DNA of 64,000 nt, taken from assembly GCA_023374045.1 (NCBI GenBank), contig CM041778.1:287409533-287473532 (forward strand). The letters are read 5' to 3'. The DNA comes from Limonium bicolor (taxonomy: Eukaryota > Streptophyta > Magnoliopsida > Caryophyllales > Plumbaginaceae). The notes below the pieces were generated by a model, which saw only the letters and a list, made by a program, of their open reading frames with translations, was not told the DNA's origin and did no database searches. Below, piece by piece: positions 3,714-57,316 of this stretch. The translations under genes were made by a program, and so were the position numbers. Each line of letters begins with the position of its first letter. The stretch's first letter is position 1.

Positions 3714-5393
3714 GCGAAAAATCTCTTAGCGTATGTTTACTTTTTGTAACACCCCTACCGCTAATCCTTTACTTACCGTTTAATCATCCTACGTATACTA
3801 CTACTCGCAGCGGAATTATTACTACTACGGCGGGTGATACAACGCCGCTAACTGCCCATACAACTAGCTAGTCTTACACTACTTACAGTCACGGTCTGAT
3901 GTCTAAATAATACCGAGCTACTACATTACATACCTCTTACAAAGTATCATATACTTACAATGCTGGATTACCGAGTGTCAAAAGCATGATTAATTACATC
4001 CCATTCAAGTCTAGAAAAATCACGAGTTCTAACAAAGCACTCACCTATACCAATTCACAACTCTTTCAATATCCAAAAGGGTGTACCCCATGGTACACCG
4101 ACTAAACAAAAAGGCCTATAGCGGTGTACAACTTAGTACCCCATTCACAGTCTATTAATTACATCAAAAGAAAACATCTTGAATCCATCAAGTCTTCACC
4201 CTTCACGAGCACCTGTAAAATATTAAAAATGGTGCCCCAAGGGGCTCAGTAAAAGCTGCATATAAACTTCGCATATACCGTGTGCTAACAAGGGTACGCC
4301 GACTATTTAAGGTCGACTGTATATGCGGTTCATTATTATCATACATACATGCTTTACATACACCATACAATCATACACATTGCAATACACAAGCCAAAAC
4401 AACAATACAATAGCATACACAATTCTTACCTTCACAAGGGTTAGCCAATTACACATCCGGGTTAATCGGATGTTTATTACTCTTTTACTCATTACACATT
4501 ACTTACACAAACATACTCATACTTTACTTACTTACTTTACCATACTCGTTTACTTATTCATACTTACTTACTTTTACTCATGTTAAGTCGGTATGACCTC
4601 TGGGCAGGGACTACACCGTCCCACCACCGGGCTTTAGGTGGCTCACTAATCCAGGATGCTACCCATTTAAGGGGTTTGGGCCGTGGAAAAGATTAAAGCC
4701 AGGAATTGGAGCCAACCTCTTGTGACTCCGCCTCCTCACGCGTGGCCGAAACTATATCGGACTTCTACTCATTCCAATTTACCAATTTATTATGTTAGAT
4801 TGGTTTGCTTGTTAGGAATTAGTTAGAAGTCCAACACCATAACATTTGGTCACTACAATATAAGTCAAGATCTCACACATTCATCATCATCCATACATTT
4901 CATGAATTATACAAACTATGATTTAAAGATAATATCCAAACAAGGAACAATACCATATAATCACAAGTAAGCATAATAGTTCCGATTCGTGCGTTTTTCT
5001 TATTAGGTGATCAATTAGCACACAAGCACACAAATCAGAGTAGCCAAGGTAGCATACAGGGCATGAGAAGTTCATACCGTTCACCGTTGTACTTGTAACT
5101 GACTTTCCTTCTGTGTTCACAATTCAAGTCCTATCACATACTTACAATTGGGTGGTTAATTATCCATAATTAACCTTAATTATTGTTTTTCTAAAGTTTC
5201 CCAGTTTATACTTACTAACTTATTCATATACATTTACTTAAGTCACTTACTTAACATTATTTTCTAAGCTTGTTTATAGCCTTAATGACCTTTAAACATC
5301 ATTAATCATGTCTTAATTATCTTATACCATCATTACCCATCATTACCCTACCTTAGATTAGCTTTAAAATGGTTTATGTGAAGAAAATGATGT

Positions 5394-5646
5394 GGTCCGG
5401 GTTACTGTCCAGGTTTACAAACCCGGACCACTACTTTGTAAAACTCTCGGGTAAGAAAAATGACTGGTCCGGGTATGTGTACTACTTTACAAACCCGGAC
5501 CATTAGTTCACTAAACTCTCGGGTGACATTTAAGGGTGGTCCGGGTTAGTGTCCTGGTTTGTAAACCCGGACCACTCCACTGGCATAACAATCTGTCGAG
5601 TTTTATAGCTGGTCCGGGTTTCTGTACCGGTTTACAGACCCGGACC
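5394..5646. repeat. Palindromic hairpin array, LTR of A (4 units)
   Basis: Four 36-base cores start at 5394, 5466, 5538 and 5611, a period of 72, 72 and 73. Each core begins GGTCCGGGT and ends ACCCGGACC, so it can fold into a stem of nine or more pairs. The 36-base spacers are less conserved (CTCTCGGGT recurs). The right LTR holds the same array at 32058-32310. Confidence 0.9.
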
Positions 5647-6503
5647 AGTTGCAGTTTTGTAAAATATATATGTTTTTTATTATGTTTCAACTCCAAACTT
5701 CAACAAACTTCTTCCCCACTCTTCCTACATATATCCTAGCATGTTTTGACATTGATTAAGCACTTTATTCTAACCTAATCCAACCTATACCACTATCTGT
5801 CAACTTACAGATTTTTACTGCTAATTTTTTCTTTCTGTTGCAGTTTTCTTCTTCAACCAATGTTACAGATCTTTCCTTTCTTCTTCCCACTAGCTAAATG
5901 ACTCTCAATCTAGCATAACTTAGTTAAACACTTCCCATTACACCATTTCTAGTTTCACTCACTACACCTCTTCTTCCTGTTACAAACCAAGGTGAAAATC
6001 TCATTCTTTTCTTCTCTGTAAACCTCCCTGTTCTTTCTTTTCTAACAGCATTCAAGTCTCTAAATTCCTAATCAAATTTTGACAGAGTTTCCCTACAATT
6101 CTAAGTGTTCTCACTACATAATTTTGCTCACTCAACACAGTTTACAACCTGCTCAATATACACATTATTCCCACACAAACTTCTAACACTTACTGCACAC
6201 TTAATATTTACACATAGCATTTTATTTCCTTGTTTTCAAAAGCTTCAAACTACCAATGCAGTTAACATTAATATACTCCATCCCTTTCCTACTGTTATAG
6301 TAGTTTAACCATTGCTTAAGCAATGCATTTAAACATACACAAACATTGAAAACTGTACAGGGCACTTCATTACCTTGAGTTCTTGATTCTTCTTTTTTTT
6401 TTCTCTCTTTCTCCTTTCTTGCTCCTCTTCCCTTCTTGTTCTTGTTTCTTTGTTTTCTTGATTTTATTTAAGCCAAGCTACACCATGTAACAAGGCATAC
6501 ACT

Positions 6504-6524
6504 CACACACACACACACACACAC
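6504..6524. repeat. CA dinucleotide microsatellite
   Basis: About ten CA units. The right LTR of the same element has far fewer (near 33170), so length changed after insertion. Confidence 0.9.
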
Positions 6525-7557
6525 ATAAAAACTAGTAAATTTCTAACGTAGGTTTTTAAACCCTAACTTGTGATAAACCATTTAAAACTCTTAGGAAGTC
6601 TTACCTTGAGCTTCTAATGGAGTTTTTGGGTGGAAAAATGACAAGGATTCAGCTCTCAAGATGGAACACCAAACCGGCTGGATGAGGGAACAGTAGTGTT
6701 CACGTAAGTTTGATTTTTACAAGAAAAACTAGAAAAGAGGAGAGCTTTGGTCCTTTTCTTACCTTAGAACATGAAGAAGAAGATGAAGCTTCAAATGGTG
6801 CTCCTTAGGCCTCAAAAAAGGTTTCACCCATGAAAATTAAGTTGGAGGTTTTTGATTTTTGAAAGGTGTAAAACGATCTCCAAAGCAAGATGATTCCAAC
6901 GGTATATTTTTTGTAGTGTTTGGAGGTGATTTAGGGTTTCAAATGTGAGAAGGAAATGGGATGCTGTGAGTGGATTCTCAAATCGCCATTACTGGGAGGA
7001 AAGAAGAAGAGAGAGTGCTGGGCAAGGAAAAAGAACGTGAGGGTGTTTGTAAGGGAGGAGAGAGAGTTTACTTTTTTACTTTTTGTTACTTTACTTATTT
7101 GTCTCATAGTACGTAAGGAGGGAAATAAAAGAGAATGAGAGAGAGGGGGCTCTAAAATCGGCCGGCTACACACACTCCCTCACATGGGTTTTAAAATCTT
7201 ATTTGCAATAGTGGACACACTACTTTATTTTATTTACACTCTCACCCCACAACTTCCCGGTTTTTACAGTTTTTACTATTTTCTTGTTTAATTGATTTTA
7301 TTGGTTCTAAACCTTCATTAATGTTTATTAATGACTATTTGGTAGACCAAAATTATTACGAGTCTATTTGACCCGCTTAAAGTGGCGTTTTCCCGGTTTC
7401 CTCGAAAAACACGCTTTAAGATTCGTTTGTGTTTTTAATTCTTTTTAAGGATCCGTTTTCTTCGGGATTTGTTCCCTCATGATTATTTATGCATAATTAA
7501 GCTTCTAAAATACTTATTAGCCTAATTAATCACTATTTTTAATTACGGGGTATTTCA

Positions 7558-7573
7558 ATCTACCCCCCTTAAG
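7558..7573 (-). promoter_or_regulatory. Polypurine tract of A
   Basis: In element direction CTTAAGGGGGGTAGAT abuts the 3' LTR. Element C (43563-43578) and B (21065-21080) have the same tract and a nearly identical 30-base sequence before it. It would prime plus-strand DNA synthesis. Confidence 0.9.
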
Positions 7574-7987
7574 AAACTTTGCCCTCAAAGTTGCTCAAGG
7601 TTAAAGGTTTAATAATTCTACTCATTAGGCAAACCAATTGCCATAATGCATCTTACTACCACCTACGAGATGTTTACTTCTTCTACATTACAAGCATACA
7701 CAATTCAAGCACCATACGCAATCCACATACACAATGCACCATTTCCATACACATCATTCCACAATCATACACATTACACCAATACATTACACATTGCACA
7801 TACACATCCATGCATTACACATTACACATACATACCAAATACACTTCGCACTACATGTGCCATCAAAACATACTACAATACATACACACTATGCAATGCT
7901 AACCTGAAGCAATGCAAAAGCAAAATGGCACTACCACCCTTAAAAAGGGGTATGCCCCGTACCCGTACCCGCTAAGTGCTAGACTAT
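7574..7987 (-). other. 3' untranslated region of A
   Basis: Between the end of the pol frame and the polypurine tract. On the plus strand the stretch is rich in ACA/CAT triplets (7680-7880) and has no coding signature; frames across it only translate this simple sequence. B has the equivalent region at 21081-21600. Confidence 0.7.
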
Positions 7988-8710
7988 CTAGTCTATGAAT
8001 AACTGTGGGTACTTCGCCTTCATGGCGTCTTCTAACTCCCATGTCGCTTCTTCGACATCATGGTTTGACCATAGGACCTTCACCATTCGTATAGACTTAT
8101 GGCGAGTGTCTCTGGTCTTCCTATCAAGGATTATAACGGGAGTTTCAACATATCTCATGGTCGGCTCAATGGATAGTCTCTCGGGCTCTAGGACATGAGA
8201 AGGATCGGCAATATACTTCTTGAGTTGTGACACATGAAAAACATCATGGACACGCCCCAAGTCCTCGGGTAATGCTAACCTGTAGGCTACAACTCCAACT
8301 CTCTCGGTGATAGTGTATGGCCCTACAAACTTCGGGCTCAGCTTTCCCTTCTGGCCAAAATGGAATACGCCCTTCATAGGTGAAACGCGCAAGAACACTT
8401 GGTCACCCACGGCGAACTCAAGGTCGCGTCGTCGCACATCCGCATAAGATTTTTGTCTATCTTGGGCTGCTTTCTTATTAGCTTGAATTTGTTGTACTTC
8501 CACTTGGACTTGTTCTAAATACTCCGGTCCTATGATGACCGCTTCACTTGACTCATCCCAACACAAGGGTGTACGGCAAGGTCTACCGTATAGGGCTTGG
8601 AAAGGCGACATCTTAATCGAAGCATGATAACTATTATTGTACGAAAACTCGATAAGATGAAGCTTATCTAACCAACTCCCCTGAAAATCTAAGGCATATG
8701 CCCTAAGCAT
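7988..8710 (-). pseudogene. Integrase C-terminus and chromodomain of A
   Basis: A 240-residue open frame. Its first part continues the integrase core ([18 protein letters not shown]). A GPY/F-type module follows around residues 130-150 ([21 protein letters not shown] is the region; key residues G, P, Y). A chromodomain-like end contains VKVLWSNH and EEATWELED, then the stop. Chromodomains bind methylated histone H3 and steer chromovirus insertion. This part of pol is open, but upstream stops cut it off from translation. The family is recognised from the RT-RH-IN-CHD order; Tekay/Del is the best fit. Confidence 0.85.
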
Positions 8711-9383
8711 GTCCTCCAGTGTCTAGATGGTCCTTTCTGTCTGACCGTCAGTCTGAGGATGGAAGGCGGTACTCAGCTTCAATTCTGTACCCAACGCATC
8801 CTGTGTAGCTCTCCAGTATCTTGAAAGAAATCTAGTGTCGCGGTCAGATACTATGGTCTTCGGGACTCTGTGGTGTTTGATAATCTCCTTGTCGAATAGC
8901 TCTGCAAGCTTCACTACCTTCCAGGTGTCCTTCATTGGTATGAATCAGGCAACCTTGGTGAGGCGATCGACTACTACCCAGATCATGTTGAGTCCTCCCC
9001 TGGCAGGTGGGAGTCCTACAACTAAATCCATGGAGATATCATGAAATTTCTACTCTGGAATTGGCATCGATTGTACCATTCCGCCTGGTCTACGATGTTC
9101 AAAATTCACTTTCTAGCACGTGAGGCATCTCAATACATACTCTGTCACATCTGATTTCATTCCTGACCACCAGAAGTACCTCTTCAGATCTTTGTACATC
9201 TTGGAGGTTCCTGGATGGGCTGACAACGTAGAACTATGTGACTCTCGCAGGATGCGATCCCTTAGCTCAGCATTGCTTCGGGGGACGCATAGCCTGGCAT
9301 TCAGCCGAATCAGACCATCTTCATGCAACTTAAAAATCATATTTCTTCTTCTCAAATATACCATCTGTGATCTTCTGTCTGAT
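8711..9383 (-). pseudogene. Integrase zinc-binding and catalytic core of A, broken
   Basis: The HHCC zinc-binding domain is readable: H...H in the HSSTLSAH region, then CLTC. The catalytic core has MDLVVGLP (first D), VSDRDTRF (second D) and HPQTDGQTERT (E). In-frame stops occur at 9113-9115, 9050-9052, 8945-8947 and 8723-8725. By comparison with B, three of these are explained by single C-to-T or G-to-A changes at Q, W and R codons; the last needs two changes. The enzyme would insert the cDNA into the genome; this copy is dead. Confidence 0.88.
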
Positions 9384-9962
9384 TTAGGTCAGGTAAGGGT
9401 CGCTCAACTGAGCGTCTCGTACCTCGTCACCCAAGCTAGAAGAAGCGAGTAGCGAATGGAGCGGGTGTGCTTGACGACTCAGGGCGTCAGCTACAATGTT
9501 TGACTTCCCTTCCTTATACTGCAGGTTGATGTCGTAGTCTGAGAGAAACTTCATCCACCTTCTCTGTCTCAAGTTCAACTCTTTTTGCGTGAATACATAC
9601 TGTAAGCTCTTGTGGTAGGAGTAGATGGTGATGCTTACCCCATAGAGATAGTGTCGCCATATCTTTAAGGCGAAGACAATGGCTCCTAGCTCTAGGTCGT
9701 GAGTCGGGTAATTATCCTCATGCTTTTTCAGCTGGCGGGAGGCGTAGGCTACAACCTTGCCATGCTGCATGAGTACGCATCCCATTCCCTTGCCTGATGC
9801 ATCACAATACACCTCAAATCCCTCTATGCCCTCTGGAAGAGTAAGGATGGACGCTGAGGTCAATGAGTCTTTTAGGCTCTGAAATGATACTTCACACTCG
9901 TCTGTCCATACAAACGGTGCATCTTTCTTCATCAGTGTAGTCATGGGATTAGCAACTTTCAA
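9384..9962 (-). pseudogene. RNase H domain of A
   Basis: A 192-residue open frame with [12 protein letters not shown] (first catalytic Asp), [20 protein letters not shown] (Glu) and ADALSR (last Asp). The third acidic site reads TIYSYHKS, with Tyr at codon 9615-9617, where B has Asp; a catalytic residue is therefore lost. RNase H removes the RNA strand after reverse transcription. The 5' part of the frame ([18 protein letters not shown]) is the RT connection. Confidence 0.9.
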
Positions 9963-10867
9963 GAAGTCCTTTACAAATCTCGGGTAGTAACCGGCTAGAC
10001 CAAGAAAGCTCCTAATGTCAGTAACAGTCTTGGGTCTAGGCCATGATCGTACAACTTCTATTTTAGAAGGGTCAACTGAAATGCCTACGCTCGAGATGAC
10101 ATGACCAAGGAATGATACCTAATCTATCTAGAACTCCCATTTGGAGAACTTCGCATACAACTGGTTCTCGCGCAGTGTCTCAAGTTTCTCAAATGAATTT
10201 CATGTTCTTCTGCTGATTTGGAATACACAAGGATATCGTCGATAAATACTACAACTGAGGTGTCTAACTGCTCACTGAATAGTCGATTCATTAAATCCAT
10301 GAATTTTGCTAGTGCATTTGACAAACCGAATGGCATGACGGTGAATTCGTAGTGGCCATATCTGGTATGGAATGCCATTTTCTCGATGTCTTGCTCTCTA
10401 ATAGCAATCTGATGGTACCAAGAACGGAGGTCGATCTTGGAGAAGACTGAGGCTCCTTTCAGCTGGTCGAATAGGTTGTCGATGCGTGGCAATGGGTATT
10501 TATTTTTTACTGTAACCGCATTCAACTCGCGGTAGTCAATACAAAGTCAGAGGCTACCGTCCTTCTTCTTCACGAAGAGGACCAGTGCTCCCTAGGGTGA
10601 TACGCTCGGGTGTATAAACCCTTTATCGAGAAGATCGTGCAACTGTTCTTTCAGCTCTGTCATTTCTGCAGGTGCCATACGGTACGGTGCCCTAGCAATG
10701 GGACCAGTACCTGGCAAGAGGTCAATCTCAAACTCTACTGCTCTTCGAGGTGGCATACCAGGTAGCTCCTTAGGGAATACGTCAGGGAATTCAGATACAA
10801 TTGGTACTTCGGGGGTTGAACTCTGGATCTCTCTCCAGGTCTTGTACATAACACAAATACACTTCAT
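9963..10867 (-). pseudogene. Reverse transcriptase of A, broken
   Basis: Motifs in order: [11 protein letters not shown] at the RT entrance, [40 protein letters not shown] and the catalytic [11 protein letters not shown]. The FIDD box carries the two catalytic aspartates. Stops lie at 10592-10594, near 10545, and at 10128-10130 and 10119-10121. A small deletion after the FIDD box (near 10195) shifts the frame. A one-base gain near 10810 separates protease from RT. Most stops correspond to W, Q or R codons in B. Confidence 0.9.
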
Positions 10868-11405
10868 GGCCCTTTCTGAGCTCCCGGTACATAGCCATAG
10901 CGGAGATGACTATGGTCGAAGGCTCTCTCGGTCTCTGGTGGTAGGATACAGTAACCCTAGAAGGACTCTTGAGCAGCAATCGATGCTCGGCGCAGAGGAT
11001 TCGCCCCTTGTGCCGCTCCATCCAGTTCATTCCGACTATTACGTCGAATCCCAACCCATTAAACTCGATGAAGGAGATGGGAAACGCTTCACCTTTGATT
11101 TGGATCGTGGCTGCTTTATAATACTTGGTACATCGTATCCGCTCCTTCGACGGGAGAGTAACCAAGAAATTCGGTAGCTCATCCACATCTAGCCCCAACC
11201 TCTTCACGAAAGATGGTGATACAAAGGTGTGAGAGGCGTCGGAGTTGAATAACACTGAGGCTTCAATGCCGTTCACTGGGAAGGTTCCCATTAAGATGGT
11301 GCCGCTTTTACCAGCTTGTGCTTCGGTGAGGATACTCAGGTTACCTTCGGTACCGAGTCCACAACATATTGAAGTCACAAGTTCATAAGTAATGATGGTG
11401 GACAC
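10868..11405 (-). pseudogene. Aspartic protease and linker of A
   Basis: The frame holds the retropepsin region SVLFNSDASHTF followed by VSPSFVKRLGL. B has the normal DSGASHTF at the matching place, so A has lost the catalytic Asp and the Gly of the active site. The second half (IEFNGLGFDVIVGMNWMERHKGRI) contains the typical G-x-D-x-I-x-G-M-x-W stretch that ends plant Ty3 proteases. Protease would cut the Gag-Pol precursor. The start is likely an acceptor splice site in B (24988); in A that site reads AT instead of AG. Confidence 0.85.
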
Positions 11406-11506
11406 AAGTGGAATTTAAATCAACACTTCTCTTTATTGATAAACCAACCATCACACATATCGCGTATCTAATACATGTTACTAATACATTACATGATACT
11501 ACGGTT

Positions 11507-12265
11507 TTAATACTTTCTAAAGGTAAGGTTCAGGCGTCCTGGTTTCATGTGTGTGCCACTGATTATTGCCGGCGGTGCCGTATTCAACTTGATCTTGTTG
11601 ATCACGTGATACAGCATCCTAGATTTTCCACCCATGATTAGGACATCTCCCGATCTCAATACCAATTTTTCTGCGTGGTCCACACGCTTCTGCTCGCTAT
11701 ACAAAAATACGGCATCATCACCAATGGACCAAGACACTACAGGCACTCCTTGTTTAAGAGATTCCCCTGTCTCGTCCTTGTCTTGGTGTAACCCAAGTCG
11801 TCCTTCTTTCTCATAGAAGTTGACGATACAAAGGTCCGCTTCAAGTGCGGGGATCGGATCATTTTCTCATTGTTGTGCAAGTTCTACTGCTTGTGTAATA
11901 AGTGTTTGAAATTCTGGGGGTATTGTCGGTGGCGTCGCTCCGTCTTGTGTTCGTGTCTCTTGGTATGTCTTGGTATAAGGGTTCCAATCCTTTCCCAAGC
12001 ACATCATCTTCAGCTTCATCTTTGCTCCACCGGGGAATTCGGGTGTATAAAATCCTCCTGGACCCGTTCCTATCTCATTGCATCGTCGGATGATTGAGAT
12101 TTGTGCTTCGGGTGTCAGGTATCCTCTTAATAAAATCATACCTGGGCGGATGACCTGACACTGCTCGCTGGAGTAGTGGTATGTGGTGATGTCGGTCTCT
12201 TCTTGATTTGGGTTTGAAGGTATCGGGTAGCAGATATTAAAACTACCTATGGTTGTAAATTTCAT
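11507..12265 (-). pseudogene. AlkB-type 2OG-Fe(II) dioxygenase carried by A
   Basis: A 252-codon frame with one internal TGA at 11867-11869 (codon 133; B has TGT). Seen: RPGMILLRGYL (residues ~45-55), MKLKMMCLGKDWNP in the nucleotide-recognition part, then the double-stranded beta-helix core. Iron ligands: H160-Q-D162 in GLHQDKDE and H220 in MLYHV. The 2-oxoglutarate and fold motif RxNxTxR is R244-L-N246-L-T248-F-R250 in GRLNLTFRKY. AlkB enzymes oxidatively remove methyl groups from nucleic-acid bases. The sequence looks like plant ALKBH1-like proteins, not like the short AlkB domains of plant RNA viruses (from memory of both families). It lies between gag and protease in element orientation. 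Substrate and role are unknown. Confidence 0.93.
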
Positions 12266-12745
12266 CTACGGTGAGTACTAGTCTCAACTACTTCATTTCG
12301 TGCTCATTACATACTTCAATTCATTTACTCATGCATTCACTCAAACAGTTACTCCAATACTTAGACATACTTCTCAAGGATTCAAGGTTTAGTTAATTAC
12401 CTAGGCCAGACTTAGAACCGGTCCCATCTCGGTCAATAATGTGCAAGGCGGGATGCCCCTGGGGTGCGCCCTTCTAAGGACCTCGGGATCCCTGTCCTTG
12501 CGGCGCCTGCTGGGCCGATGCATCGCCAGATGCAACCTCCTTGCCTTCCCTCTGCTTGTAGCTCTGGAAGTTCCCTTTGGACTTGGCATTCTCTGGGCAC
12601 ATGTTGGCTCGATGTCCCGGTTTCTGACAGTTGTAGCACCGGATTTCTTTCCCTTGGAAATCCATGTCGGGATGGTCTTGGTTACACTTTCTGCACACAT
12701 AGCTGCGGCCGTCGGAGTAGTTCTTGGTGTAACTGGAGCCAGAAC

Positions 12746-12828
12746 CTAAGGCTTAGAGTGTTAGCACATTGGTGCAGAAATACTAGCTATGATACTTATA
12801 CAAATACAAATTTAGATTAGAAGTTTAC
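12746..12828 (-). other. Predicted gag intron 2 of A (83 bp)
   Basis: In element direction the donor is AAGG|GTAAAC at 12828 and the acceptor CTTAG|GTTCTGG at 12746. B has an intron of 92 bp at the same place with phase 1 on both sides. Reading through would hit stops, and removal joins the two conserved gag frames. No RNA evidence. Confidence 0.6.
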
Positions 12829-12921
12829 CCTTATGTGGGTGTGATCACAGTGGCTTCGCAGCCACCGGCGCAGAAGAACCTAGCTGAAGAAGCTCAACTG
12901 GTTTGCCCTTCTCAGGGGCAC

Positions 12922-14670
12922 TGCAGACGTGTTATTTGTGAGTGGTTAGAACAGGTATAATTAACATAAAAGAAAGAAATTAAAACCCAAAAATAAACGT
13001 CGGGCTGCAAATAAATCCCGGTCGCAGTAGTATAGTGAAAATGTAAGCAACCGGATGTCGAACCGTGGGACTAATGTACATATAATAGTTCCTAAGCGTG
13101 TCACAAGAGGGGGGATTAATTGACTTGTAAAAAATAATAGAAAGAAAAGATAAATAAACTAAGTTAACAGATAAATAAAATGGAACTCTGGGTCAGGTTA
13201 TTATAATCTGCATAATTAAGCTATCTCTACTGGTTTAATAATTTGGCAAGGTTCCTGTAAATATCTTAAGGACTAAGTCATAGCCTCATAAGAACTCGTT
13301 CACCTGTAATGCAAGGTTCTAATCAAGGTTCAAGCAAAAGCCTGCGAACGGCAGAGGAGTATTGAGGAATTACATTTGCAACTGAATACTAACTTATTAA
13401 ATCATAACAAGTTTCCTCCAGTTTTACGCCTTAATTAACCTGTCTATTTATCACCTGGTCTGATCAAAATAGACTTAGTAGAGCAATTTAATAAATTCGC
13501 GAGATCTATTAAAAAGGCGAGATGACTTTTAATACGTAACAAATTGTATATAAATAAACCAGTAGAAATATTGCATAATTAATACAGATACATAATAACT
13601 ATTCCCAGAGTAAACGTAAACTAGCCTAACATATTAAATAGATAGATAGAGACGAGAGTAATAGAAATCATCCGTAATCAGTCCGTCTCACTCTGCTATT
13701 TTGTGTACGTAGGGCTAGAGGTGAATTTGGTGTACTGTAAAATAAATAAAATGGAGAAGGCGGGAGAAGAGAAATGAGATGGCGTGAAGTGGTCGTGGAT
13801 CGATTGGTGAATTCGTGAGTGATTTATTGGGTGAAGCTCGTGGGTTTATATAGAAAAAGGAAGAAGCAGCAGAGGAGGTAACAGACGTGTGAAGGATTGA
13901 GCTCACTGATTGCTCACTGATTGAAGCATTGATTGCTTCATTTATTGCAGGGGACAGGAGTTGGAGACGCGCAGCGAAATAAGGTAGGCGTAGTGGACGA
14001 GTGGGCGAGTTGCAGACAGTCGGTGAAGGTAAGTTGAGCACGACGGGCGAAGAAGAAACTGGTCGCGACTAGAATTAATCACAACCGCGCCTGAAGAACC
14101 GCCCGGTATTAGGCGGTCTCCTCCTCTCCTGTCCGCCAATGAACCAGGCGGTAGCCTGTGTCTCGTCCGCCTGATAAGTGGCGGTCTCCTCTGTTGTGTC
14201 CGCCTCGCGGTTGCATGTGAGAGGTCCGCTAGAAAATAAGCGGTTGTCTCTTGTGGTGGTGTGTTCCTTGTCCGCCTGTTTACCTTGAGGACACTTGTGT
14301 CTTGTCCGCCTCTTATCAGGAGGACACTTGTGTCTTGTCCGCCTCGAGGACACTTGTGTCTTGTCCGCCTCTTATCAGGAGGACACTTGTGTCTTGTCCG
14401 CCTCTTATCAGGAGGACATGGCTTATTTCTTCTACCGGCTCTAGATTCTTTGTTTGGACTCCGTTTTTCGAGCCGTTTGCGGCTATGCGTTCGTCTCTTC
14501 GTCTACTTTACTTCCAGCTTGGTTTTCCTCATGTTAAACCAATAAATTTGTGAGATAATAATAAAACATAAACTAGAGGAAAACTAACCGAAGTGGAGAA
14601 ATGAGCAAGAAAAGTGCTAATATTATATATGAAATACACCTATAAATCATGCTCATTTGGACACTTATCA
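12922..14670 (-). mobile_element. Solo LTR inside gag of A (1749 bp)
   Basis: In its own orientation it begins TGATAAGTGTCC and ends CACGTCTGCA. Five-base target duplications GGCAC flank it at 12917-12921 and 14671-14675. Removing it and one duplication leaves gag exon 2 at exactly the length in B, which proves insertion into exon 2. It is unrelated by eye to the LTRs of A, B or C. It has no coding region; its right part carries an array of CCGCC/GGCGG hairpins. Confidence 0.92.
14098..14420. repeat. Hairpin array and minisatellite inside the solo LTR
   Basis: Stems such as ACCGCC...GGCGGT (14098-14117), CCGCC...GGCGG (14133-14151), CCGCC...GGCGG (14167-14184) and CCGC...GCGG (14226-14242) are followed by near-identical units of about 33-38 bases containing GACACTTGTGTC and GTCCGCCTC...GGAGGAC (14278-14420). 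Most units can fold back on themselves. The motif family differs from the arrays in A, B and C. Confidence 0.85.
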
Positions 14671-14859
14671 GGCACTGCTCTCACTAGGGGAGTTCTTCTG
14701 TGATTGCTGGAAGAACTTCCCCTTCTTATTTTTCCAGCTCTTGCCCTGGTTCTGCTCCTCAGCACTAGTGTTTTTGCTGTTGGCCTTGCGCTTAAGCGCA
14801 GTTTCTTCATCCCTTAGTTGGCAAGTGATCTCAACACGAGATGCCGCGTGATAGCACTC

Positions 14860-14948
14860 CTGAAGTTTCAGGTATTAGCCGGGATTCTTACTCAGAAAGA
14901 TAAGGGTAAAGTATTTACAATGGTACTAAGGGTTAAACCGATATTTAC
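14860..14948 (-). other. Predicted gag intron 1 of A (89 bp)
   Basis: Donor TAG|GTAAAT at 14948 and acceptor ACTTCAG|GAGTGC at 14860. B has CAG|GTAAAC and ATTCAG|GAGTG at the same place with an 87-bp intron, phase 0. Splicing joins the Gag core to the RDE-rich segment before the zinc knuckle. In A the last exon codon has become TAG. Confidence 0.6.
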
Positions 14949-15614
14949 CTAGAGGGAGGTAAATCTGGTGTAGCCTATGCTGTACCGAAGGCGATGGCTC
15001 AGACCGCCATAGAAGCGATCAATCAACACCTGGTCGGTGTACCCAAGGTCGGGTAAAAGACGAAGGAGGGAGGTGAAGGTGCGGTAGTACTCATCGACAG
15101 ACATCTTCTCTGTCATCTTCAAGGCATCAAGCTCTAGTCTTTTCTTTGTTTTGACATGTTCCGGGTAGTATTTGGATCGAAGGAGGGCTATGAAGGATTC
15201 CCAATCGAATGTAGGATCGTTGACATGCTCGTTCTTGACTAACTTCCACCAATCCATAGCTGCATCCGTAAGGTAATAAGCTGCTACTCTAACTCGAATT
15301 CCAGCAGGAGCTTTGAGGGTTTCAAAGGTTGTCCCCATCTCGGAGATGTAGGCTTCTAACTTAGCCGGATCACACTCGCCTCGAAAGCACGAAGGTCGGA
15401 GTTCCGCTACAGATTTAACCTAGTTCGCTTCTCTGGGTGGAGGGGGAGGGATTGGTCCCGTTTGTGTTTGTTGGTTTTGTTGGGTTTGTAGCATCGCTGT
15501 GATTACTTGGGGTAGCATTTGCACTACCGTGGCGGCGACGATCTCTGCTATCGTCTGCGCGCCTGGTCCATCAGAAGTCTCTCCCCCAGGTCGGCCTCGA
15601 CCTCGTCCTGACAT

Positions 15615-15840
15615 CTGAACATTTAACACTTACATTAGGCTTTGTAACATGTGACCAATGGGTCTTGAATTTAAGCAAGGTATCGTTCGTAAGAAGGTCA
15701 AGGGTATCCGTTGTTGACTACGGTAATTCCTAGTTAGGTTTCTAAGTATCCATTTTAAAATAGTTGAAATCTTAACTCGGTAATCCCTATGCTCGGTAGC
15801 TTAGGACATCAGAGTGTAACTACGCTCTGATACCACTTTT
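15615..15840 (-). other. 5' leader of A between LTR and gag
   Basis: Contains the primer-binding site next to the LTR and an AT-rich leader with repeated TTAC-CGAGTTA-type motifs also found in B, C and D. No upstream frame of note apart from an ATG at 15629 in frame with gag. Confidence 0.7.
15824..15835 (-). promoter_or_regulatory. Primer-binding site of A (tRNA-Met)
   Basis: In element direction TGGTATCAGAGC, a perfect 12-base match to the initiator tRNA-Met primer site, five bases (AAAAG) after the LTR end. Confidence 0.95.
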
Positions 15841-17132
15841 TGTAACACCCCTACCGCTAATCCTTTACTTACCGTTTAATCATCCTACTTATACTACTAC
15901 TCGTAATGAAATTACTACTACTACGACGGGTGATACAACGCCGCAAACCACCCATACGGCTAGCTAGGCTTACACTACTTATAGTCACGGTCTGATGTCT
16001 AAATAATACCGAGCTACTACATTACATACCTCTTACAAAGTATCATATACTTACAATGCTGGATTACCGAGTGTCAAAAGCATGATTAATTACATCCCAT
16101 TCAAGTCTACAAAAATCGCGAATTCTAACAAACCACTCACCTATACCAATTCACAACTCTTTCAATATCCAAAAGGGTGTACCCCATGGTACACCGGCTA
16201 AACAAAAAGGCCTATAGTCGTGTACAACTTAGTACACCATTCACAGTCTATTAATTACATCAAAAGAAAACATCTTGAATCCATCAAGTCTTCACCCTTC
16301 ACGAGCACCTGGAAAATATTAAAAACGGTGTCCCAAGGGGCTCAGCAAAAGCTGCATATAAACTTCGCATATACCTCGTGCAAACTAGGGTACGCCAACT
16401 ATTTAAGGTCGACTGTACATGCGGTTCATTATTATCATACATACATGCTTTACATACACCATACAATCATACACATTGCAATACACAAGCCAAAACAGCA
16501 ATACAATAGCATACACAATACTTACCTTCACAAGGGTTAGCCAATTACACATCCGGGTTAATCGGATGTTTATTACTCTTTTACTCATTACATATTACTT
16601 ACACAAACATACTCATACTTTACTTACTTACTTTACCATACTCGTTTACTTATTCATACTTACTTACTTTTACTCATGTTAAGTCGGTATGACCTCCGGG
16701 CAGGGACTACACCGTCCCACCACCGGGCTTTAGGTGGCTCACTAATCCAGGATGCTACCCATTTAAGGGGTTTAGGCCGTGGAAAAGATTAAAGCCAGGA
16801 ATTGGAGCCAACCTCTTGTGACTCCGCCTCCTCACGCGTGGCCAAAACTATATCGGACTTCTACTCATTCCAGTTTACTAATTTATTATGTTAGATTGGT
16901 TAGCTTGTTAGGAATTAGTTAGCAGTCCAACACCATAACATTCGGTCACTACAATATAAGTCAAGCACACACACATTCATCATCATCCATACATTTCATG
17001 AATTATACAAACTATGATTTAAAGATAATATCCAAACAAGGACCAATACCATATAATCACAAGTAAGCATAATAGTTCCGATTCGTGCATTTTTCTTATT
17101 AGGTGATCAATTAGCACACAAATCAGAGTAGC
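15841..17132 (-). mobile_element. 5' LTR of A, left segment
   Basis: Starts TGTAACACCCC on the plus strand and matches 3745-5042. It stops at GTAGC (17128-17132), the target duplication of element B. The LTR continues at 31712. Confidence 0.95.
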
Positions 17133-17589
17133 TGTAACACCCCAACCGCTAATCCTTCCATTATCCTCTAATCCTTCCCATAATTACCTTACTCGCAGCG
17201 GAATACTTACCTACTCCCGGCGGGTGATACGATGCCATTAACCATCCAAGGTTAACAAGGCTACTACTACTTACCGTATCGGTCTGACGATTAGAATGAA
17301 TACATACATACTACATACTTACAATACCAAATACTTAGTTTACATTTGATTACCGAGTATACCGAATATATGAATTACATTCATGTCTACTTCCCAAAAA
17401 TGATGAGTTTATACAACTACTCCTTCACAACCAATCAAGAATTCAATATCCCAAAAAGGTGTACCACATGGTACACCGGCTACCCAAAAGCTCTAGCCGT
17501 GTACAACTCGGTACACTATTCCAATTCCTACTACTACTCCAAAAAGAATTACATGCGGCCCTTACTCTACCTTCACGCCTCGCGGGTAC

Positions 17590-20276
17590 CTGTGGAGTAA
17601 AAACATTCCCCCTAGGGGGTCAGCTTACGCTGCATATGATAACCGCATACCCCGCGTACTAGCGAGGGTACGCCAACTATTTGGTCGAGTACATGCGGTT
17701 CGTTTCATTCATACATACATACATGCTTCATACAATACAATACAATACATTCATTTTATCACGCATTCATACATACAATGCATACAAGGAATACAATACA
17801 AGTCATTCATTCATAATTACCATACTCACCGCATCACGGAGATACAATTCTCCAATACATACAAGGTCTTGTTAGCCTTATTACACACCCGGGTTAATCG
17901 GGTGTTCAATACTTTTTACTCCGGGTCAATGACTTACAATAGTCAAGACCAATACAATACAATACTTACATTCTTACATACTTTACTTCCAGTTAAGTCG
18001 GTATGACCTCCGGGCAGGGAGTACTATCTCCCACCACCGGGCTTTAGGGTGGCCCACTAATCCAGGATGCTACCCATACAAGGGAATTGTCCAAGGAAAA
18101 GATCATAGCCAGGATTCGGTTCCAACCTCTTGTGGTTCCTTATCCTCACGCGTGGCCGAAACTATATCGGGCTTCTACTCATTCCATTTTACTCATTACT
18201 CATGTTAGGAGTTAGGTTGTTAGGAATTAGTAGAAGTCCATACTTACTTCCATACATACTACAATACACAATACTCATACTTACACATACACTTCATTTC
18301 CATTCATTCATTTCATGAATTATACAAACTAAATGTTCAAGACAATAAACAAGAACAATATAGTTCAAACACATTATGTGCAATATAAATCCGATTCATG
18401 CATTTATCTTGTTGGTGATCACATAAGCACACAAATCGGGGTAACCAAGTTAGGATACAGGGCATGAAGAAATCATACCGTTCACCGTCGTATACGTTTA
18501 CCGGGTTCCTTTGGAGATCAACTATTTGATTCCTATACACATGAAGTAGTATGATCAATGATCTATTATTGATCTACTTACTCCTTCATTGACTTTCAAT
18601 ATACTTACTACTTCATTACTTCTTACTTGGTTATAAACCATTCTTTTCTCATTACTCTTATTTTTACTTTCTTACCTTTACTATTCATTTATTATGTACT
18701 ACTACATATATATGCATATATGTATATAGGCATATATATGTATATATGCATGTACATATGATTGCTATAATCATATTATAAAAATACTCTTTTTTTTTTT
18801 AAAGACTCGACCGGACTTGCAAGTCCGGTCGCAAGTCCGGTCCAAGTCAGTAGCTTGCATTACGGAATTTTCTGGCCGACCGGACTTGCATGTCCGGTCG
18901 CAAGTCCGGTCCATTCCAGTAGGTTTCATCGGGGAATTTTTTTGGTCCGACCGGACTTGCATGTCCGGTCGCAAGTCCGGTCGATTCCAGTAGCATTTTG
19001 ACGGGAAAATTTTCTGCTCGACCGGACTTGCAAGTCCGGTCGCAAGTCCGGTCGATTCCAGTAACATTCTGACGGGAAACTTTTCTGCTCGACCGGACTT
19101 GCAAGTCCGGTCGCAAGTCCGGTCGATTCCAGTAACATTCCCGTCTTGTAAATCTGGGCTCGACCGACCTTGCAAGTCCGGTCGCAGGTCCGGTCGGCCC
19201 CAGTACTTCAGTTTAAAATCTGTTTTCAATTGCATTCTTTACCCATTGCTTCCCCAATCTTTACCAATACTTCCCCACATGATTTAGCACTAATCAAACA
19301 CTCTAAATCACCTTGGTTCATCCACCAAACTTACTACTCAATCCTTACATTCACTTACCCATTTTTCCTAATTCTATTTCAACACTTATACTAGTTTCCT
19401 TACACTAATGCTACAGATTTTTGTTTCCTCTTCTTATGCTACAGATTTTTACTCAACTCTTATACTCCAACACTCCCTCAACTTATGCTACTCTTAGCAT
19501 CTCGAATACAATTACTCACCACCGAGTTTCATCCCCTTAACATATTTCTTTCAAAATCTGTTACAAACTACAAAACTCTCCATTTAAACTCTTCAAAATC
19601 TGTTACAAATGTGCCTAAGTCCTCAAATTCCTAGATGAATTTTGACATAGCCTCCCCTATATTTTACCATTCTCCACACATTATTTCAGCTCACATAATT
19701 CCCATTCTCATATGTTTACCAATACACTACACACACTTCAACACTATTACAACAACACAAAATTCCTGCACATACACATACTACCCAATGTTTTCCCAAG
19801 CTTTTAAAACTCATTTAAACTTCAAAACTGTTACATTCTTTTCTCCAATACATTTCACATTACTACTACTCATACTCAATACATTACTCATTTTACTACT
19901 CCAAAAACTGTTACATACACAATACAAACTAACTCAAGGTAAGGATTTACCTTGTCTTGTTAGTTTTCTTTCTTTCTTTCCTCTTCTTCTTTCTTCTCCT
20001 TGTTCTCGGTTCCAATGTTCTCCACACAACAAGTGCTACAGCCATAACATACACCTACCATTTAGCATTCATTTTTACTAACCCTAGAATTTAAGTTTTA
20101 GGGTTTAGGAAAGAGTGTTACCTTCCAATGAGTAGATGGAGTTCTTGACTAGCAAGAGAACAATATTCCTAGCCCACAAGAGCCAAATCGGCTGGAGCAA
20201 GAAGAACAAGAGTTCAAAACTGAAAATTCTTAAAATGCCAATGAGCTAGAAACATGGATTTTCGAATTCTTTTTAC
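17590..20276 (-). other. Predicted leader intron(s) in LTR of B
   Basis: Donor-like sites on the minus strand: TGAG|GTAAAA (20276), GGAAG|GTAACA (20121), CAAG|GTAAAT (19950). Acceptor-like TCCACAG|GTACCCG at 17590. Arrangement as in A, C and the solo LTR at 58277. Motif-based only. Confidence 0.38.
18809..19195. repeat. Palindromic hairpin array, LTR of B (6 units)
   Basis: Units start at 18809, 18878, 18949, 19020, 19091 and 19162, a period of 69-71. Each core is GACCGGACTTGCAAGTCCGG or a variant with CATG in the middle, followed by a third half-site GCAAGTCCGGTC. Spacers contain ATTCCAGTA and GACGGGAAA. The stem sequence differs from A and C but the layout is the same. Confidence 0.92.
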
Positions 20277-21064
20277 CTCAAGATGAAGAGGAGGTGAAGG
20301 TGCTTCTAATGGTGGACTTGAATCTTCAAATGGTGAAACCCTCAAAAACGAAATGGTCTTTTCGATTTTTGAAAGATGAAATGCTCTCCTTGCAAGGGGA
20401 TTCCAATGGTGTATTTTGTTTTGAGTTTGGACAAGTTTGAGCTAAACAAGAGAGAGAAGGAGGAGTTTTGTGGTTTCTTCATTCTCCATGGCTTCGTAGG
20501 TAGAGAAGAGAAAAGGAATAGAGAGATAGGGGGTGAAGAACGGAGAGAGGGATGGGGGTGAGGTGAGAGAATTTTTTTTCTTTTTACTTATTCCTTTTGT
20601 CATTTAGTGAATTAGGAATAATAAAGAGAGGGGAGTGAGAGGGAAATCGGTCACACATATGCCCCTCTACAGATTTTTGCTTTTTATTTGCAAAGTGGAC
20701 ACACTAAGTTTGTTTAATTGCATTCTCACCACCCCACAACTTACCGGTTGTTACAGTTCTTACTAACCGGTACCCGTTTTCCGGAATTTTCTCGTTTAAT
20801 TAATTTTATTGGTTCTAAAGCTTCACTAATATTTATTAGTGACTATTTAGTTGACCAAAATTGTTACGAGTCTATTTGACCCGCTTAAAGTCACGTTTTC
20901 CCGGTTTCCTCGAAAACGCGCTTTAAGGTTCGTTTATGCTTTTAACCCATTTTAAAGGTCCGTTTTCTTCGGGATTTGTTCCCTCATATTTATTTAAGTG
21001 TAATTAAGCCTTTAAAAATATAATTAGCCTAATTAATCACTGTTTTTAATTACGGGGTATTTCA

Positions 21065-21080
21065 ATCTACCCCCCTTAAG
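21065..21080 (-). promoter_or_regulatory. Polypurine tract of B
   Basis: CTTAAGGGGGGTAGAT in element direction, next to the 3' LTR, identical to A and C. Confidence 0.9.
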
Positions 21081-21600
21081 AAACTTTGCCCTCAAAGTTG
21101 CTCAAGGTTACCGTTTACCATTTCTACTCATTTGGCAATTCAATTGCCACAATACATTCTACTACCACCTTACAAGGTGTTCACAATTCTTACACTACCA
21201 GCATACGCAATTCAAATACCATACGCACTACTCATCCATACACATACTTCATTCAAATACCATACACAATGCTCCATCCAATTCATACAATCCACAATAT
21301 ATTCGCAATACTTCACAATGTCATTCGTGTCATATACCGTACAACACAATGCATTACTCATTACATACATACCATACACATACATACTCACTGTATTACA
21401 TACCGAGTACTACAGCACTACTTTGTGCCAATAAATCCAATTAGCACTACATGTGCCAACCAAAATACAATTACAATACATACATACTACGCAATGCTAA
21501 CCCGAAGCAATGCAAAAGCAAAAAGGCTCTACCCCCCTTAAAAGGGGTACGCCCCGTACCCTCCGTGCTATACGGATACTAGACATCTAGTCTACAAATA
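21081..21600 (-). other. 3' untranslated region of B
   Basis: CA/TA-rich simple sequence on the plus strand between polypurine tract and pol, matching 7574-7987 of A. No coding signature. Confidence 0.65.
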
Positions 21601-22247
21601 AATTCGGGTACTTCGCCTTCATGGCGTCCTCTAATTCCCAAGTCGCTTCTTCTCGACGTCAGTCGCTTCATCGACGGTCGTGGTTAGACACAAGACCTTC
21701 ACATTCGTACCAGATTTATGGCGAGTGGTCTTGTTGGATCAAGGATTCGCAGTGGAGTCTCGACATTCATCTCGGCTCGGCTCTAGGGATAGATGTTCGG
21801 TTCTAATACATGAGAGGGATCGGCTATGTATTCTTGAGTTGTGATACATGAAAGACATCATGAACACGCCCCAATTCTTCAGGCAATGCTAGCCTATAAG
21901 CTACGGCTCCAACCCTCTCGGTAATGGCATACGGGCCTACAAATTTCGGGCTCAGTTTGCCCTTCTGGCCAAATCGGAAGACACCCTTCATAGGTGAGAC
22001 ACGCAGAACACTTGGTCGCCCACGGCGAACTCAAGGTCGCGTCGTCGCACATCCGCATAGGATTTCTGTCTATCTTGGGCTGCCTTCATATTGGCTCGGA
22101 TTTGTGTACCTCAGCTTGTACTTGTTCCAAATACTCCGGTCCTATGATGACCGCTTCGCTTGACTCATCCAACACAACGGGGTACGGCAAGGTCTACCAT
22201 ACAAAGCTTGGAATGGCGACATCTTAATCGAAGCATGATAGCTATTG
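21601..22247 (-). pseudogene. Integrase C-terminus of B, frameshifted
   Basis: Nucleotide similarity to 7995-8660 of A is clear over the whole stretch (for example TTCGCCTTCATGGCGTC near 21611). The frame is broken several times: around 21650 by a duplicated or altered segment in the chromodomain part, and by small deletions near 22010, 22105 and 22260. A chromodomain can no longer be read in one frame. Confidence 0.75.
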
Positions 22248-22990
22248 TTATACGAAAACTCGATAGATGAAGCTTCTCAATCCAGCTCCCCTGAAGTCTA
22301 AGGCACATGCCCTAAGCATATCCTCTAGTGTTTGGATGGTCCTTTCTGTCTGACCGTCGGTCTGTGGGTGGAAGGCGGTGCTAAGCTTCAACTCAGTACC
22401 AAGCGCTTCCCGTGTCGCTCTCCAGTATCTCGAAAGAAATCTGGTATCGCGGTCAGATACAATGGTTTTTGGGACTCCGTGGTGTCGGATGATCTCCTTG
22501 TCGAATAGCTCTGCGAGCTTCGCCACCTTCCAGGTGTCCTTCATCGGTATGAATCGGGCAACCTTGGTGAGGCGATCGACTACTACCCAGATCATGTTGA
22601 GTCCTCCCCTAGCAGGTGGGAGTCCAACAACAAAATCCATGGAGATGTCATGGAATTTCCACTCCGGAATGGGCATGGATTGCACCATTCCTCCCGGTCT
22701 TCGGTGCTCAAACTTCACCTTCTGGCATGTGAGACACCTCAGAACATACTCAGTCACGTCTGATTTCATTCCTGACCACCAGAAGTACCTCTTCATGTCT
22801 TTGTACATTTTAGAGGCTCCCGGATGGACATGCAATGTCGAACAATGTGACTCACGCAGAATGCGATCCCTTAGCTCAGCATTGCTTCGGGGGACGCATA
22901 ATCTGCCATTCAAACGGATCAGACCATCTTCATGCAGTTTGAAGTCGTACTTTCGGCGCTCGAAGGTACCATCTGTAATTCTGTCTGATC
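22248..22990 (-). pseudogene. Integrase of B, largely open
   Basis: A 221-residue open frame begins LCVPRSNAELRDRILRESH and contains the HHCC zinc domain (ending CLTCQK) and the catalytic core: MDFVVGLP (D), VSDRDTRF (D), HPQTDGQTERTIQTLED (E). All three acidic residues and all zinc ligands are present. The frame ends at a shift after RACALDF. Upstream of 22913 the frame is disturbed again near 22975. This is the best preserved integrase in the window. Confidence 0.9.
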
Positions 22991-23112
22991 TCTGTGAAGT
23001 AAGGGTCGCTCAACTGAGCGTCTCGCACCTCGTCAACCAAGCTAGAAGCAGAAGCGAGAAGCGAATGGTAGCGAATGGAGCGAGTGTGCTCGACGACTCA
23101 GGGCGTCGGCTA

Positions 23113-23529
23113 CTACGTTTGCCTTCCTTCTTTATACTGGAGGTTGATGTCGTAATCCGAGAGGAACTCCATCCACCTCCTCTGCCTTAGGTTCAATTCT
23201 TTCTGGGTGAATACGTACTGTAGACTTTTGTGGTCGGAATAGATGGTGATGCTTACCCCATAGAGATAGTGTCGCCATATCTTCAAGGCGAAGACAATGG
23301 CTCCTAACTCTAGATCATGTGTCGGGTAATTCTCCTCATGCTTTTTCAGCTGGCGAGAAGCATAGGCTACTACCTTGCCATGCTGCATGAGTACGCATCC
23401 CATACCCTTGCCTGATGCATCACAATACACCTCAAATCCCTCTGTGCCCTCTGGAAGTGTGAGGACGGGCGCTGAGGTCAATGAGTCTTTCTTTAGTTCT
23501 GAAATGATAGCTCGCACTCCTCTGTCCAT
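23113..23529 (-). pseudogene. RNase H of B
   Basis: Open frame with [28 protein letters not shown] and [13 protein letters not shown]; the third acidic residue, lost in A, is kept. The frame breaks after INLQYKEG just before the last motif, and at its start by a short change near 23490. Confidence 0.9.
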
Positions 23530-26396: not shown

Positions 26397-26488
26397 CTAT
26401 AGCTTTCAAGTTAGCAAGGTTTGGTATACTTACAATACTCTATATACTTACAATTTCACAAGTGTACTAATTCGGTTTCGGTTCTTAC
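26397..26488 (-). other. Predicted gag intron 2 of B (92 bp)
   Basis: Donor AGGG|GTAAGA at 26488, acceptor GCTATAG|GTTCTGG at 26397, phase 1 both sides, AT-rich inside. Position and phase equal to A. Confidence 0.65.

Positions 26489-57268: not shown

Positions 57269-57316
<48 letters not shown>

What the first reader, a model, noticed from the sequence alone, without database searches (positions are those of the whole stretch)
11507..12265. A Ty3 retrotransposon carries an AlkB-type dioxygenase between gag and protease
A 252-codon frame with every catalytic residue of AlkB enzymes (H160, D162, H220, R244, N246, T248, R250) sits in the interior of element A, in element orientation. Standard Ty3 elements have only gag and pol domains. 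An AlkB enzyme could strip methyl marks from the element's RNA or cDNA and help it escape host control; that role is inference. AlkB domains are known in some plant RNA viruses, but this one resembles host ALKBH1-like proteins, so it looks like a separate capture. I do not know whether such an element has been published.
Basis: partly seen in the sequence, partly recalled or inferred. Interest (0 to 1): 0.96.

Follow-up and report, generated by a model that had tools for sequence, protein, structure and literature searches.

The report
Jumping gene with spliced demethylase exon
A very abundant jumping gene in a plant genome that is likely sea lavender carries an AlkB-type enzyme gene, which is predicted to strip methyl groups from DNA or RNA, as an exon that is likely spliced onto the particle protein Gag in some transcripts and skipped in others, so the element would pack its own demethylase into its particles.

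Summary
The AlkB frame is real (minus strand, 11507-12265), but broken: a stop stands at codon 133, and the second copy (nested element B) is frameshifted. The enzyme is ALKBH1-type; rice OsALKBH1 is its best structure match. The genome (matK: Limonium) holds a huge family: in 30 of 30 fetched loci AlkB is followed by protease, in 29 the Gag zinc knuckle lies upstream. AlkB dN/dS between old lineages is about 0.09-0.15, like protease. New here: AlkB is an alternative exon. One phase-1 donor at the end of gag faces two phase-matched acceptors, before AlkB and before protease, in five deep lineages. The genome also holds copies with exactly these introns gone: 13 places join Gag to AlkB, 14 join Gag to protease. 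A deletion control with longer homology gave one near match, an ordinary exon variant; a second control did not complete. So the element likely makes Gag-AlkB and Gag-Pol by alternative splicing, and AlkB would work in the particle. Precedent: orchid Ogre-type elements with a separate ALKBH5-like ORF (PMC9289625). Enzyme subfamily, element lineage and expression differ: a new variant of a known kind. RNA and enzyme activity are untested.

The parts
3739..34209 (-). Element A, Ty3 retrotransposon; 3' LTR 3739-7557, 5' LTR 15835-17121 plus 31706-34209, split by element B
   Evidence: LTR halves 96.3% over 1287 and 95.4% over 2540 bases; primer-binding site TGGTATCAGAGC beside the 5' LTR; no matching 5-bp target duplication seen
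17133..31706 (-). Element B, related nested element inside the 5' LTR of A; LTRs about 17133-21064 and 27739-31706
   Evidence: LTRs 95.7% over 4026 bases; GTAGC on both sides
14949..15338 (-). Gag capsid region of A (exon 1)
   Evidence: Retrotrans_gag PF03732 E 8.5e-18
14860..14948 (-). predicted gag intron 1 of A
   Evidence: GT-AG ends read; positions
12746..12828 (-). predicted gag intron 2 of A
   Evidence: positions; precise removal at 126 places in a sister lineage
12401..12745 (-). Gag zinc-knuckle exon (exon 3) of A
   Evidence: tblastn with the zinc-knuckle frame of B, 75% identity
12247..12400 (-). predicted intron 3, short form; donor TAG|GT at 12400, acceptor AG|G before AlkB at 12246
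   Evidence: donor 32 of 32 copies, acceptor 32 of 32, stops in all three frames in 32 of 32
11507..12246 (-). AlkB (ALKBH1-type) alternative terminal exon of A; in-frame stop at 11867-11869
11366..12400 (-). predicted intron 3, long form, skipping AlkB; the acceptor beside 11365 is changed in this copy
   Evidence: acceptor AG|G in 30 of 32 copies; A and L025 differ
10791..11365 (-). protease of A (open frame 10791-11405)
   Evidence: RVP_2 PF08284 E 2.5e-26
10124..10525 (-). reverse transcriptase piece of A
   Evidence: RVT_1 E 1.7e-21
9384..9962 (-). RNase H of A
   Evidence: RT_RNaseH E 1.7e-33
7988..8710 (-). integrase C-terminus of A with a weak chromodomain
   Evidence: SH3_Tf2-1 E 6.8e-26; Chromo E 8.2e-4, 19.7 bits, below its cut-off 25.1
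25129..25865 (-). AlkB exon of element B, frameshifted
   Evidence: PF13532 E 1.3e-24 for 25278-25823; frame breaks; exon start
26032..26409 (-). Gag zinc knuckle frame of B
   Evidence: zf-CCHC E 2.1e-6

Best explanation
This is an old, very numerous Ty3 retrotransposon family, in a genome that is likely Limonium, whose ALKBH1-type AlkB gene is an exon between gag and protease that is likely spliced to gag to give a Gag-AlkB fusion and likely skipped to give Gag-Pol, and the enzyme is predicted to remove methyl groups from the element's own RNA or cDNA inside the particle. Shown by the sequence: the AlkB domain and its iron-site residues; the order gag-zinc knuckle-AlkB-protease-RT in the family; low dN/dS in AlkB; one phase-1 donor and two phase-matched acceptors in five deep lineages; genomic copies that carry exactly the two predicted joins, and one copy with all three introns gone. 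Inferred: that those copies came from spliced RNA; that Gag-AlkB protein is made and packaged; that the substrate is N6-methyladenine or another methylated base on the packaged nucleic acid; that this helps reverse transcription or evasion of host marking.
For: PF13532 in both halves; rice OsALKBH1 best by sequence (5xeg) and by fold (5xoi, TMt 0.92, 2.1 A over 226 columns; model pLDDT 89.8). Own genome: 38,325 loose first-look PF13532 candidates against 40 for matK. Order: AlkB then PR in 30 of 30 fetched loci, NC upstream in 29, CA in 28. dN/dS of AlkB 0.09-0.15 in six between-lineage comparisons, PR 0.10-0.12 in three. Splice sites 32/32, 32/32 and 30/32; same phases in deep lineages L035 and L036 (my reading); in an alignment of 7 representatives the donor is the only GT column, and the AlkB acceptor one of three AG columns, shared by all. 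Stops in all three frames in 32/32, and first in-frame Met 76 codons inside AlkB in 4 of 4 lineage II copies with none upstream in the open frame, so neither read-through nor an own start codon can express AlkB there. Precise joins: Gag-AlkB 13 places, 3 exact; Gag-PR 14 places, 4 exact; gag intron 2 join 126 places, 23 exact; reversed-pattern controls 0 each. L049: one 570-aa Gag-to-PR frame with all three introns gone. Control deletion with 8 bases of homology: 1 near match, 3 mismatches, an ordinary exon variant. L041 (Gag-AlkB) and L048 (Gag-PR) are 96.7% alike in gag.
Against: No RNA or protein evidence could be looked at. Introns 1 and 3 have AGG at both ends, so a small-homology deletion could mimic splicing there; the wrong-donor control was sent 12 times and never answered. 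The joins are not all independent events. Loci L001-L030 were chosen by AlkB score, so intactness is biased upwards, and 22 of the 30 belong to one lineage. dS is near saturation (five of ten pairs could not be estimated), so dN/dS is rough; closer pairs give 0.11-0.21. Copy A has a Met in frame 7 codons before the acceptor, so an own start is possible there. In L012 the 2OG-site Asn is Ser. Neither window copy can code for the enzyme, and A's acceptor before PR is changed. Spliced copies L043 and L045 have a truncated AlkB. Copies that skip AlkB may have multiplied, so AlkB may be dispensable. Substrate and packaging are untested.
Confidence: 0.72

Rival explanations
1. AlkB is made as a separate soluble protein from its own start codon or by re-initiation, as proposed for the orchid elements, and acts in trans on host or element RNA; the splice sites serve only gag-pol.
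For: The orchid precedent has a separate ORF2. Most copies of the commonest sampled lineage have an in-frame Met at codon 26 of the exon, and copy A has one 7 codons before the acceptor.
Against: All four lineage II copies have their first in-frame Met 76 codons into the exon, within the fold. The acceptor before AlkB is kept in 32 of 32 copies, and 13 genomic places carry the Gag-AlkB join.
Confidence: 0.15
2. The intron-less joins are deletions at short direct repeats, not reverse-transcribed spliced RNA; AlkB expression is by some unknown route.
For: AGG stands at both ends of introns 1 and 3. The wrong-donor control did not complete.
Against: Intron 2 has one shared base at its ends and is precisely removed at 126 places, though these descend from fewer events. 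A control with 8 bases of homology gave no true match. L049 lost all three introns exactly.
Confidence: 0.08
3. AlkB is a passenger: captured, then carried along by hitch-hiking, of no use to the element.
For: Copies that skip AlkB exist and some may have multiplied.
Against: dN/dS 0.09-0.15 across lineages with dS above 1, equal to protease; iron-site residues kept in L003, L012, L035 and L036.
Confidence: 0.05
4. The main benefit is repair: the enzyme clears m1A or m3C lesions that block reverse transcription, rather than host epitranscriptomic marks. This is a variant of the best explanation in substrate only.
For: E. coli AlkB is the second best structure group, and the stretch LHQDKDE is identical.
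Against: The closest relative is OsALKBH1, reported on 6mA in single-stranded DNA (PMC10469495 passage); no assay here.
Confidence: 0.35

Closest known systems
Phalaenopsis Gypsy_Pa_2799 with paALKBH5-like ORF2 (PMC9289625; Introduction, Methods, Results and Discussion read; supplement not seen)
   Same: Plant Ty3/Gypsy element that carries an AlkB-family 2OG-Fe(II) dioxygenase; large LTRs; high copy number
   Different: The orchid element is Ogre/Tat, its AlkB is ALKBH5-like, a separate 565-aa ORF2 beside one uninterrupted Gag-Pol ORF, and is called recent. Here: weak chromodomain, ALKBH1-type, AlkB as a likely alternative exon between gag and protease, three introns, old
Ogre elements with a gag-pol intron; Arabidopsis EVADE and barley spliced gag RNAs (passages of the review PMC12786077; BARE paper PMC3735527 seen as a search listing)
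   Same: LTR elements that use introns to tune Gag against Pol
   Different: In what I saw, splicing there gives short Gag or Gag-Pol; no captured enzyme exon is mentioned
Rice OsALKBH1 (5xeg, 5xoi) and plant ALKBH1C/1D
   Same: Same fold; host homologues are about 43-55% identical
   Different: Host genes, not in a mobile element
AlkB domains of Alphaflexi-, Betaflexi- and Closteroviridae (named in the Discussion of PMC9289625)
   Same: AlkB domain in a plant parasite genome
   Different: Positive-strand RNA viruses (recalled); not compared by sequence here

Membership tests
AlkB / 2OG-FeII_Oxy_2 (PF13532) | profile match over the curated cut-off | tested here: met
   33.8 and 110.5 bits against 31.2
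AlkB / 2OG-FeII_Oxy_2 (PF13532) | HxD...H iron site and RxNxTxR 2OG site | tested here: met
   H161 D163 H221 invariant, R245 N247 T249 R251 nearly invariant (Asn is Ser in L012); all present in A
AlkB / 2OG-FeII_Oxy_2 (PF13532) | demethylase activity | not testable with these tools
   needs an enzyme assay
Plant ALKBH1 | nearest solved structure and nearest named sequences are ALKBH1 | tested here: met
   OsALKBH1 TMt 0.92; named homologues ALKBH1C/1D
Plant ALKBH1 | nests inside the host ALKBH1 clade | tested here: inconclusive
   element rows fall outside the sampled seed plant clade (98/94), but element plus Caryophyllales is not rejected, AU p 0.155
Ty3/Gypsy LTR retrotransposon | LTRs, gag, PR-RT-RH-IN order | tested here: met
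Ty3/Gypsy LTR retrotransposon | target site duplication | tested here: inconclusive
   B GTAGC both sides; A none
Chromovirus | chromodomain at the integrase C-terminus | tested here: inconclusive
   Chromo E 8.2e-4, 19.7 bits, under the cut-off 25.1
Orchid AlkB-bearing Ogre/Tat lineage | ALKBH5-like enzyme in a separate ORF beside one Gag-Pol ORF | tested here: not met
   ALKBH1-type; between gag and PR with splice sites

The most novel reading that the evidence does not exclude
A retrotransposon that uses alternative splicing to choose between Gag, Gag-Pol and a Gag-fused nucleic acid demethylase, and so loads its particles with an enzyme that clears methyl marks or lesions from the packaged RNA or nascent cDNA; an old, selected third gene product of a Ty3 element and a second, independent AlkB capture by plant LTR elements.
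Probability: 0.5. Interest if true: 0.92.

Novelty: new variant of a known kind. Interest (0 to 1): 0.83.

Why it matters
Two captures of different AlkB subfamilies by different Ty3 lineages would make demethylation a repeated route in the plant-transposon conflict, not an orchid oddity. A Gag-AlkB exon points to the particle as the place of action, which makes the question of which methylated base limits retrotransposition directly testable. The intron-less genomic copies look like a natural record of splicing in a multi-intron LTR element; a 2025 review says plant LTR elements generally lack introns (PMC12786077 passage).

Tried and rejected
Chance match or artefact: rejected. Read-through or a single frameshift from gag into AlkB: rejected, stops in all three frames in 32 of 32 copies. 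Own start codon as the general rule: rejected for lineage II only. Host origin by tree: unresolved; the element rows are not cleanly one clade (L035 beside the hosts, 82/85), so one capture or several cannot be settled. Host ALKBH1 gene: the search with the Telopea protein scored 136 of 46,815 candidates; the four fetched of the 136 (L035-L038) are element copies, so the host gene was not found. Viral-contig scan with the intact frame: nothing. The 531-aa open frame at C1:257346517 (L039) is a deletion joining AlkB to protease, not a spliced copy. One search printed a donor table with my cut one base off; the donor count rests. The acceptor patterns largely failed and were replaced. The donor of intron 1 was not tabulated (its motif was not found in the stretch). 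Novelty searches. By title and abstract start, only the orchid paper in those listings is about AlkB in an LTR element; the review PMC12786077 cites it; the other listed papers were not opened for this, except passages of PMC7264820 (no AlkB) and PMC12310839. The Limonium genome paper was not in the listings and was not read.

Full report
Observation. On the minus strand, 11507-12265 reads as an AlkB protein of 252 codons, but with an in-frame stop at codon 133. The two halves match Pfam PF13532 on their own at E 5e-8 and 1.6e-31. The frame sits in element A between the Gag zinc-knuckle region and the protease. Element A (LTRs 3739-7557 and 15835-17121 plus 31706-34209) is interrupted in its 5' LTR by a related element B (LTRs about 17133-21064 and 27739-31706), which carries a second, frameshifted AlkB copy. 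LTR identities are 96.3% and 95.4% for the two parts of A and 95.7% for B. B has a 5-bp target duplication GTAGC; A shows none. Both have a primer-binding site TGGTATCAGAGC, which I know from recall as initiator tRNA-Met type.

Host. A matK stretch of the same assembly is 97% identical to Limonium, 88% to Popoviolimon and 80% to Plumbago. The assembly has 2,924,550,425 bases; a review table gives 2.92 Gb for Limonium bicolor (passage). The host is therefore likely Limonium, perhaps L. bicolor.

Family. A PF13532 search of the own genome gave 38,325 loose first-look candidates, of which the best 150 were scored; 149 of 150 show no stop inside (my reading of the table). The same search with the matK family gave 40 candidates. 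A search with a host-type ALKBH1 (Telopea) gave 46,815 candidates, 136 scored, 125 without a stop; the four fetched are again element copies, of further lineages. In the 30 loci fetched, AlkB is followed by PR in 30 of 30; the zinc knuckle lies upstream in 29, the capsid in 28, and RT downstream in 28. These loci were chosen by AlkB score, so they over-represent intact copies, and 22 of 30 are of one lineage.

Enzyme. The unchanged frame of copy L003 (253 aa) matches rice OsALKBH1 (5xeg) at E 1.9e-70 by sequence, then E. coli AlkB. Its predicted structure (pLDDT 89.8) matches OsALKBH1 best, TMt 0.92. In the 26-row alignment the iron-site H161, D163 and H221 are invariant; R245, N247, T249 and R251 are nearly so, and the Asn is Ser in L012. 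Named homologues are plant ALKBH1C/1D. A passage of PMC10469495 says rice ALKBH1 demethylates 6mA in single-stranded DNA in vitro.

Selection. Between A, lineage II (L012) and lineage III (L003, L014, L029), AlkB dN/dS is 0.088-0.148 in six comparisons; closer pairs give 0.11-0.21. Protease gives 0.098-0.119 in three between-lineage comparisons, 0.159 for a closer pair, and one was saturated. A was not chosen by AlkB score and gives the same values. Two deeper lineages (L035, L036) are near or at saturation at silent sites (pS 0.71-0.87, five of ten pairs not estimable), with amino acid identity 54-68%. AlkB has thus been kept by purifying selection for a long time; the exact ratios are rough.

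Gene structure. Aligned copies show that gag ends at a donor [CT]AG|GT in 32 of 32 copies (A, B and 30 loci). The acceptor before AlkB is AG|G in 32 of 32, the acceptor before protease in 30 of 32, the exceptions being A and L025. In an alignment of 7 representatives the donor is the only GT column shared by all, and the AlkB acceptor is one of three shared AG columns, one of the others being the AG of the donor itself; the protease acceptor is not shared by all because A differs. The stretch between donor and AlkB has stops in all three frames in 32 of 32, and so has the stretch between AlkB and protease. The donor is in phase 1; the upstream exon is open in that phase over 150 bases in 25 of 32, and the other seven are broken or shifted. 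The AlkB acceptor leaves two bases in 29 of 32 (L017, L020 and B are frameshifted further on), and after the protease acceptor the protease frame is met in 32 of 32, with a stop within 20 codons in L030. L035 and L036, whose introns do not resemble the others, have the same phases at all three sites (my reading). In all four lineage II copies the first in-frame Met lies 76 codons into the exon, and none stands upstream in the open frame; A, in contrast, has one 7 codons before the acceptor. Two further GT-AG introns lie in gag: of 31 copies, AG stands at acceptor 1 in 30, GT at donor 2 in 30, and at acceptor 2 in 24 CAG at the same site and in 4 TAG three bases on; donor 1 was not tabulated. 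L035 lacks intron 1 exactly at the predicted join.

Intron-less copies in the genome. I predicted the joins from these sites and then searched the genome with up to 3 mismatches. Gag-AlkB join: 13 places, 3 exact; reversed control 0. Gag-protease join skipping AlkB: 14 places, 4 exact; control 0. Gag exon 2-3 join: 126 places, 23 exact; control 0. In L040 a single frame runs from the zinc knuckle into AlkB across the join. In L049 one 570-aa frame runs from the Gag start through capsid, zinc knuckle and protease with all three introns gone at the predicted bases; a stop follows before RT. These places are not all independent: L040 and L041 lie 10 kb apart and are 98.3% alike, L043 and L045 are 99.5% alike, L050 and L051 lie 9 kb apart. 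But L042 and L049 are closest to different unspliced copies, and L051 is as close to unspliced L029 as to L050, so several events are needed; and L041 (Gag-AlkB) and L048 (Gag-protease) share 96.7% of gag, so one subfamily gave both forms. L040-L042 still hold introns 1 and 2, L043-L045 lack intron 2 and keep intron 1. A deletion control with the right donor, a wrong acceptor and 8 bases of homology gave one near match with 3 mismatches, which is an ordinary exon variant. A second control with the wrong donor did not complete. Intron 2 has one shared base at its ends, so small-homology deletion explains its precise loss badly.

Mechanism. Most likely the transcript is read in three ways: cut short in gag when unspliced (the capsid frame of L003 ends in intron 1), Gag-AlkB when the near acceptor of intron 3 is used, Gag-Pol when the far one is used. 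Gag would carry AlkB into the particle, where it would remove methyl groups from the packaged RNA or from single-stranded cDNA. The splice architecture rests on sequence and on genomic copies; RNA, fusion protein, packaging, substrate and benefit are inferred.

Known work. PMC9289625 (Introduction, Methods, Results, Discussion read) reports orchid Ogre/Tat elements with an ALKBH5-like separate ORF and m6A demethylase activity in vitro; its main text does not name Limonium, and it reports the domain in Phalaenopsis alone among 121 genomes. The searches listed no paper whose title or abstract start reports an ALKBH1-type or spliced Gag-AlkB element; most listed papers were not opened. Results against my reading: copies that have lost AlkB exist and some may have multiplied, and the trees cannot say whether there was one capture or more.

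Noticed in passing
window 12829-14858: Element A has about 1.75 kb more than B between the capsid and zinc-knuckle parts of gag, inside predicted exon 2; likely an insertion that breaks gag.
   Followed up: no
window 34262-38622 and 43579-47938: Another pair of about 4.4 kb repeats, 94.4% identical, likely LTRs of a further large element; an inverted relative lies at 60932-62726.
   Followed up: no
window 18806-19224 and 29411-29793: 71-base tandem repeats inside the LTRs of B.
   Followed up: no
window 50319-51880 and 56395-57373: AT-rich tandem arrays.
   Followed up: no
window 3739 and 34209: Element A has no matching target site duplication (CTTTT against CGTAC), which may point to recombination between elements.
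   Followed up: no
G000 C1:497439466-497470353: Four AlkB copies about 10.1 kb apart with equal scores, likely a recent tandem array of element parts.
   Followed up: no
L043 and L045: Nearly identical copies with introns 2 and 3 gone; AlkB similarity ends after about 28 residues in L045 and none was found in L043; possibly a non-autonomous subfamily.
   Followed up: partly
L035: Deep lineage that has lost gag intron 1 exactly at the predicted splice sites.
   Followed up: partly
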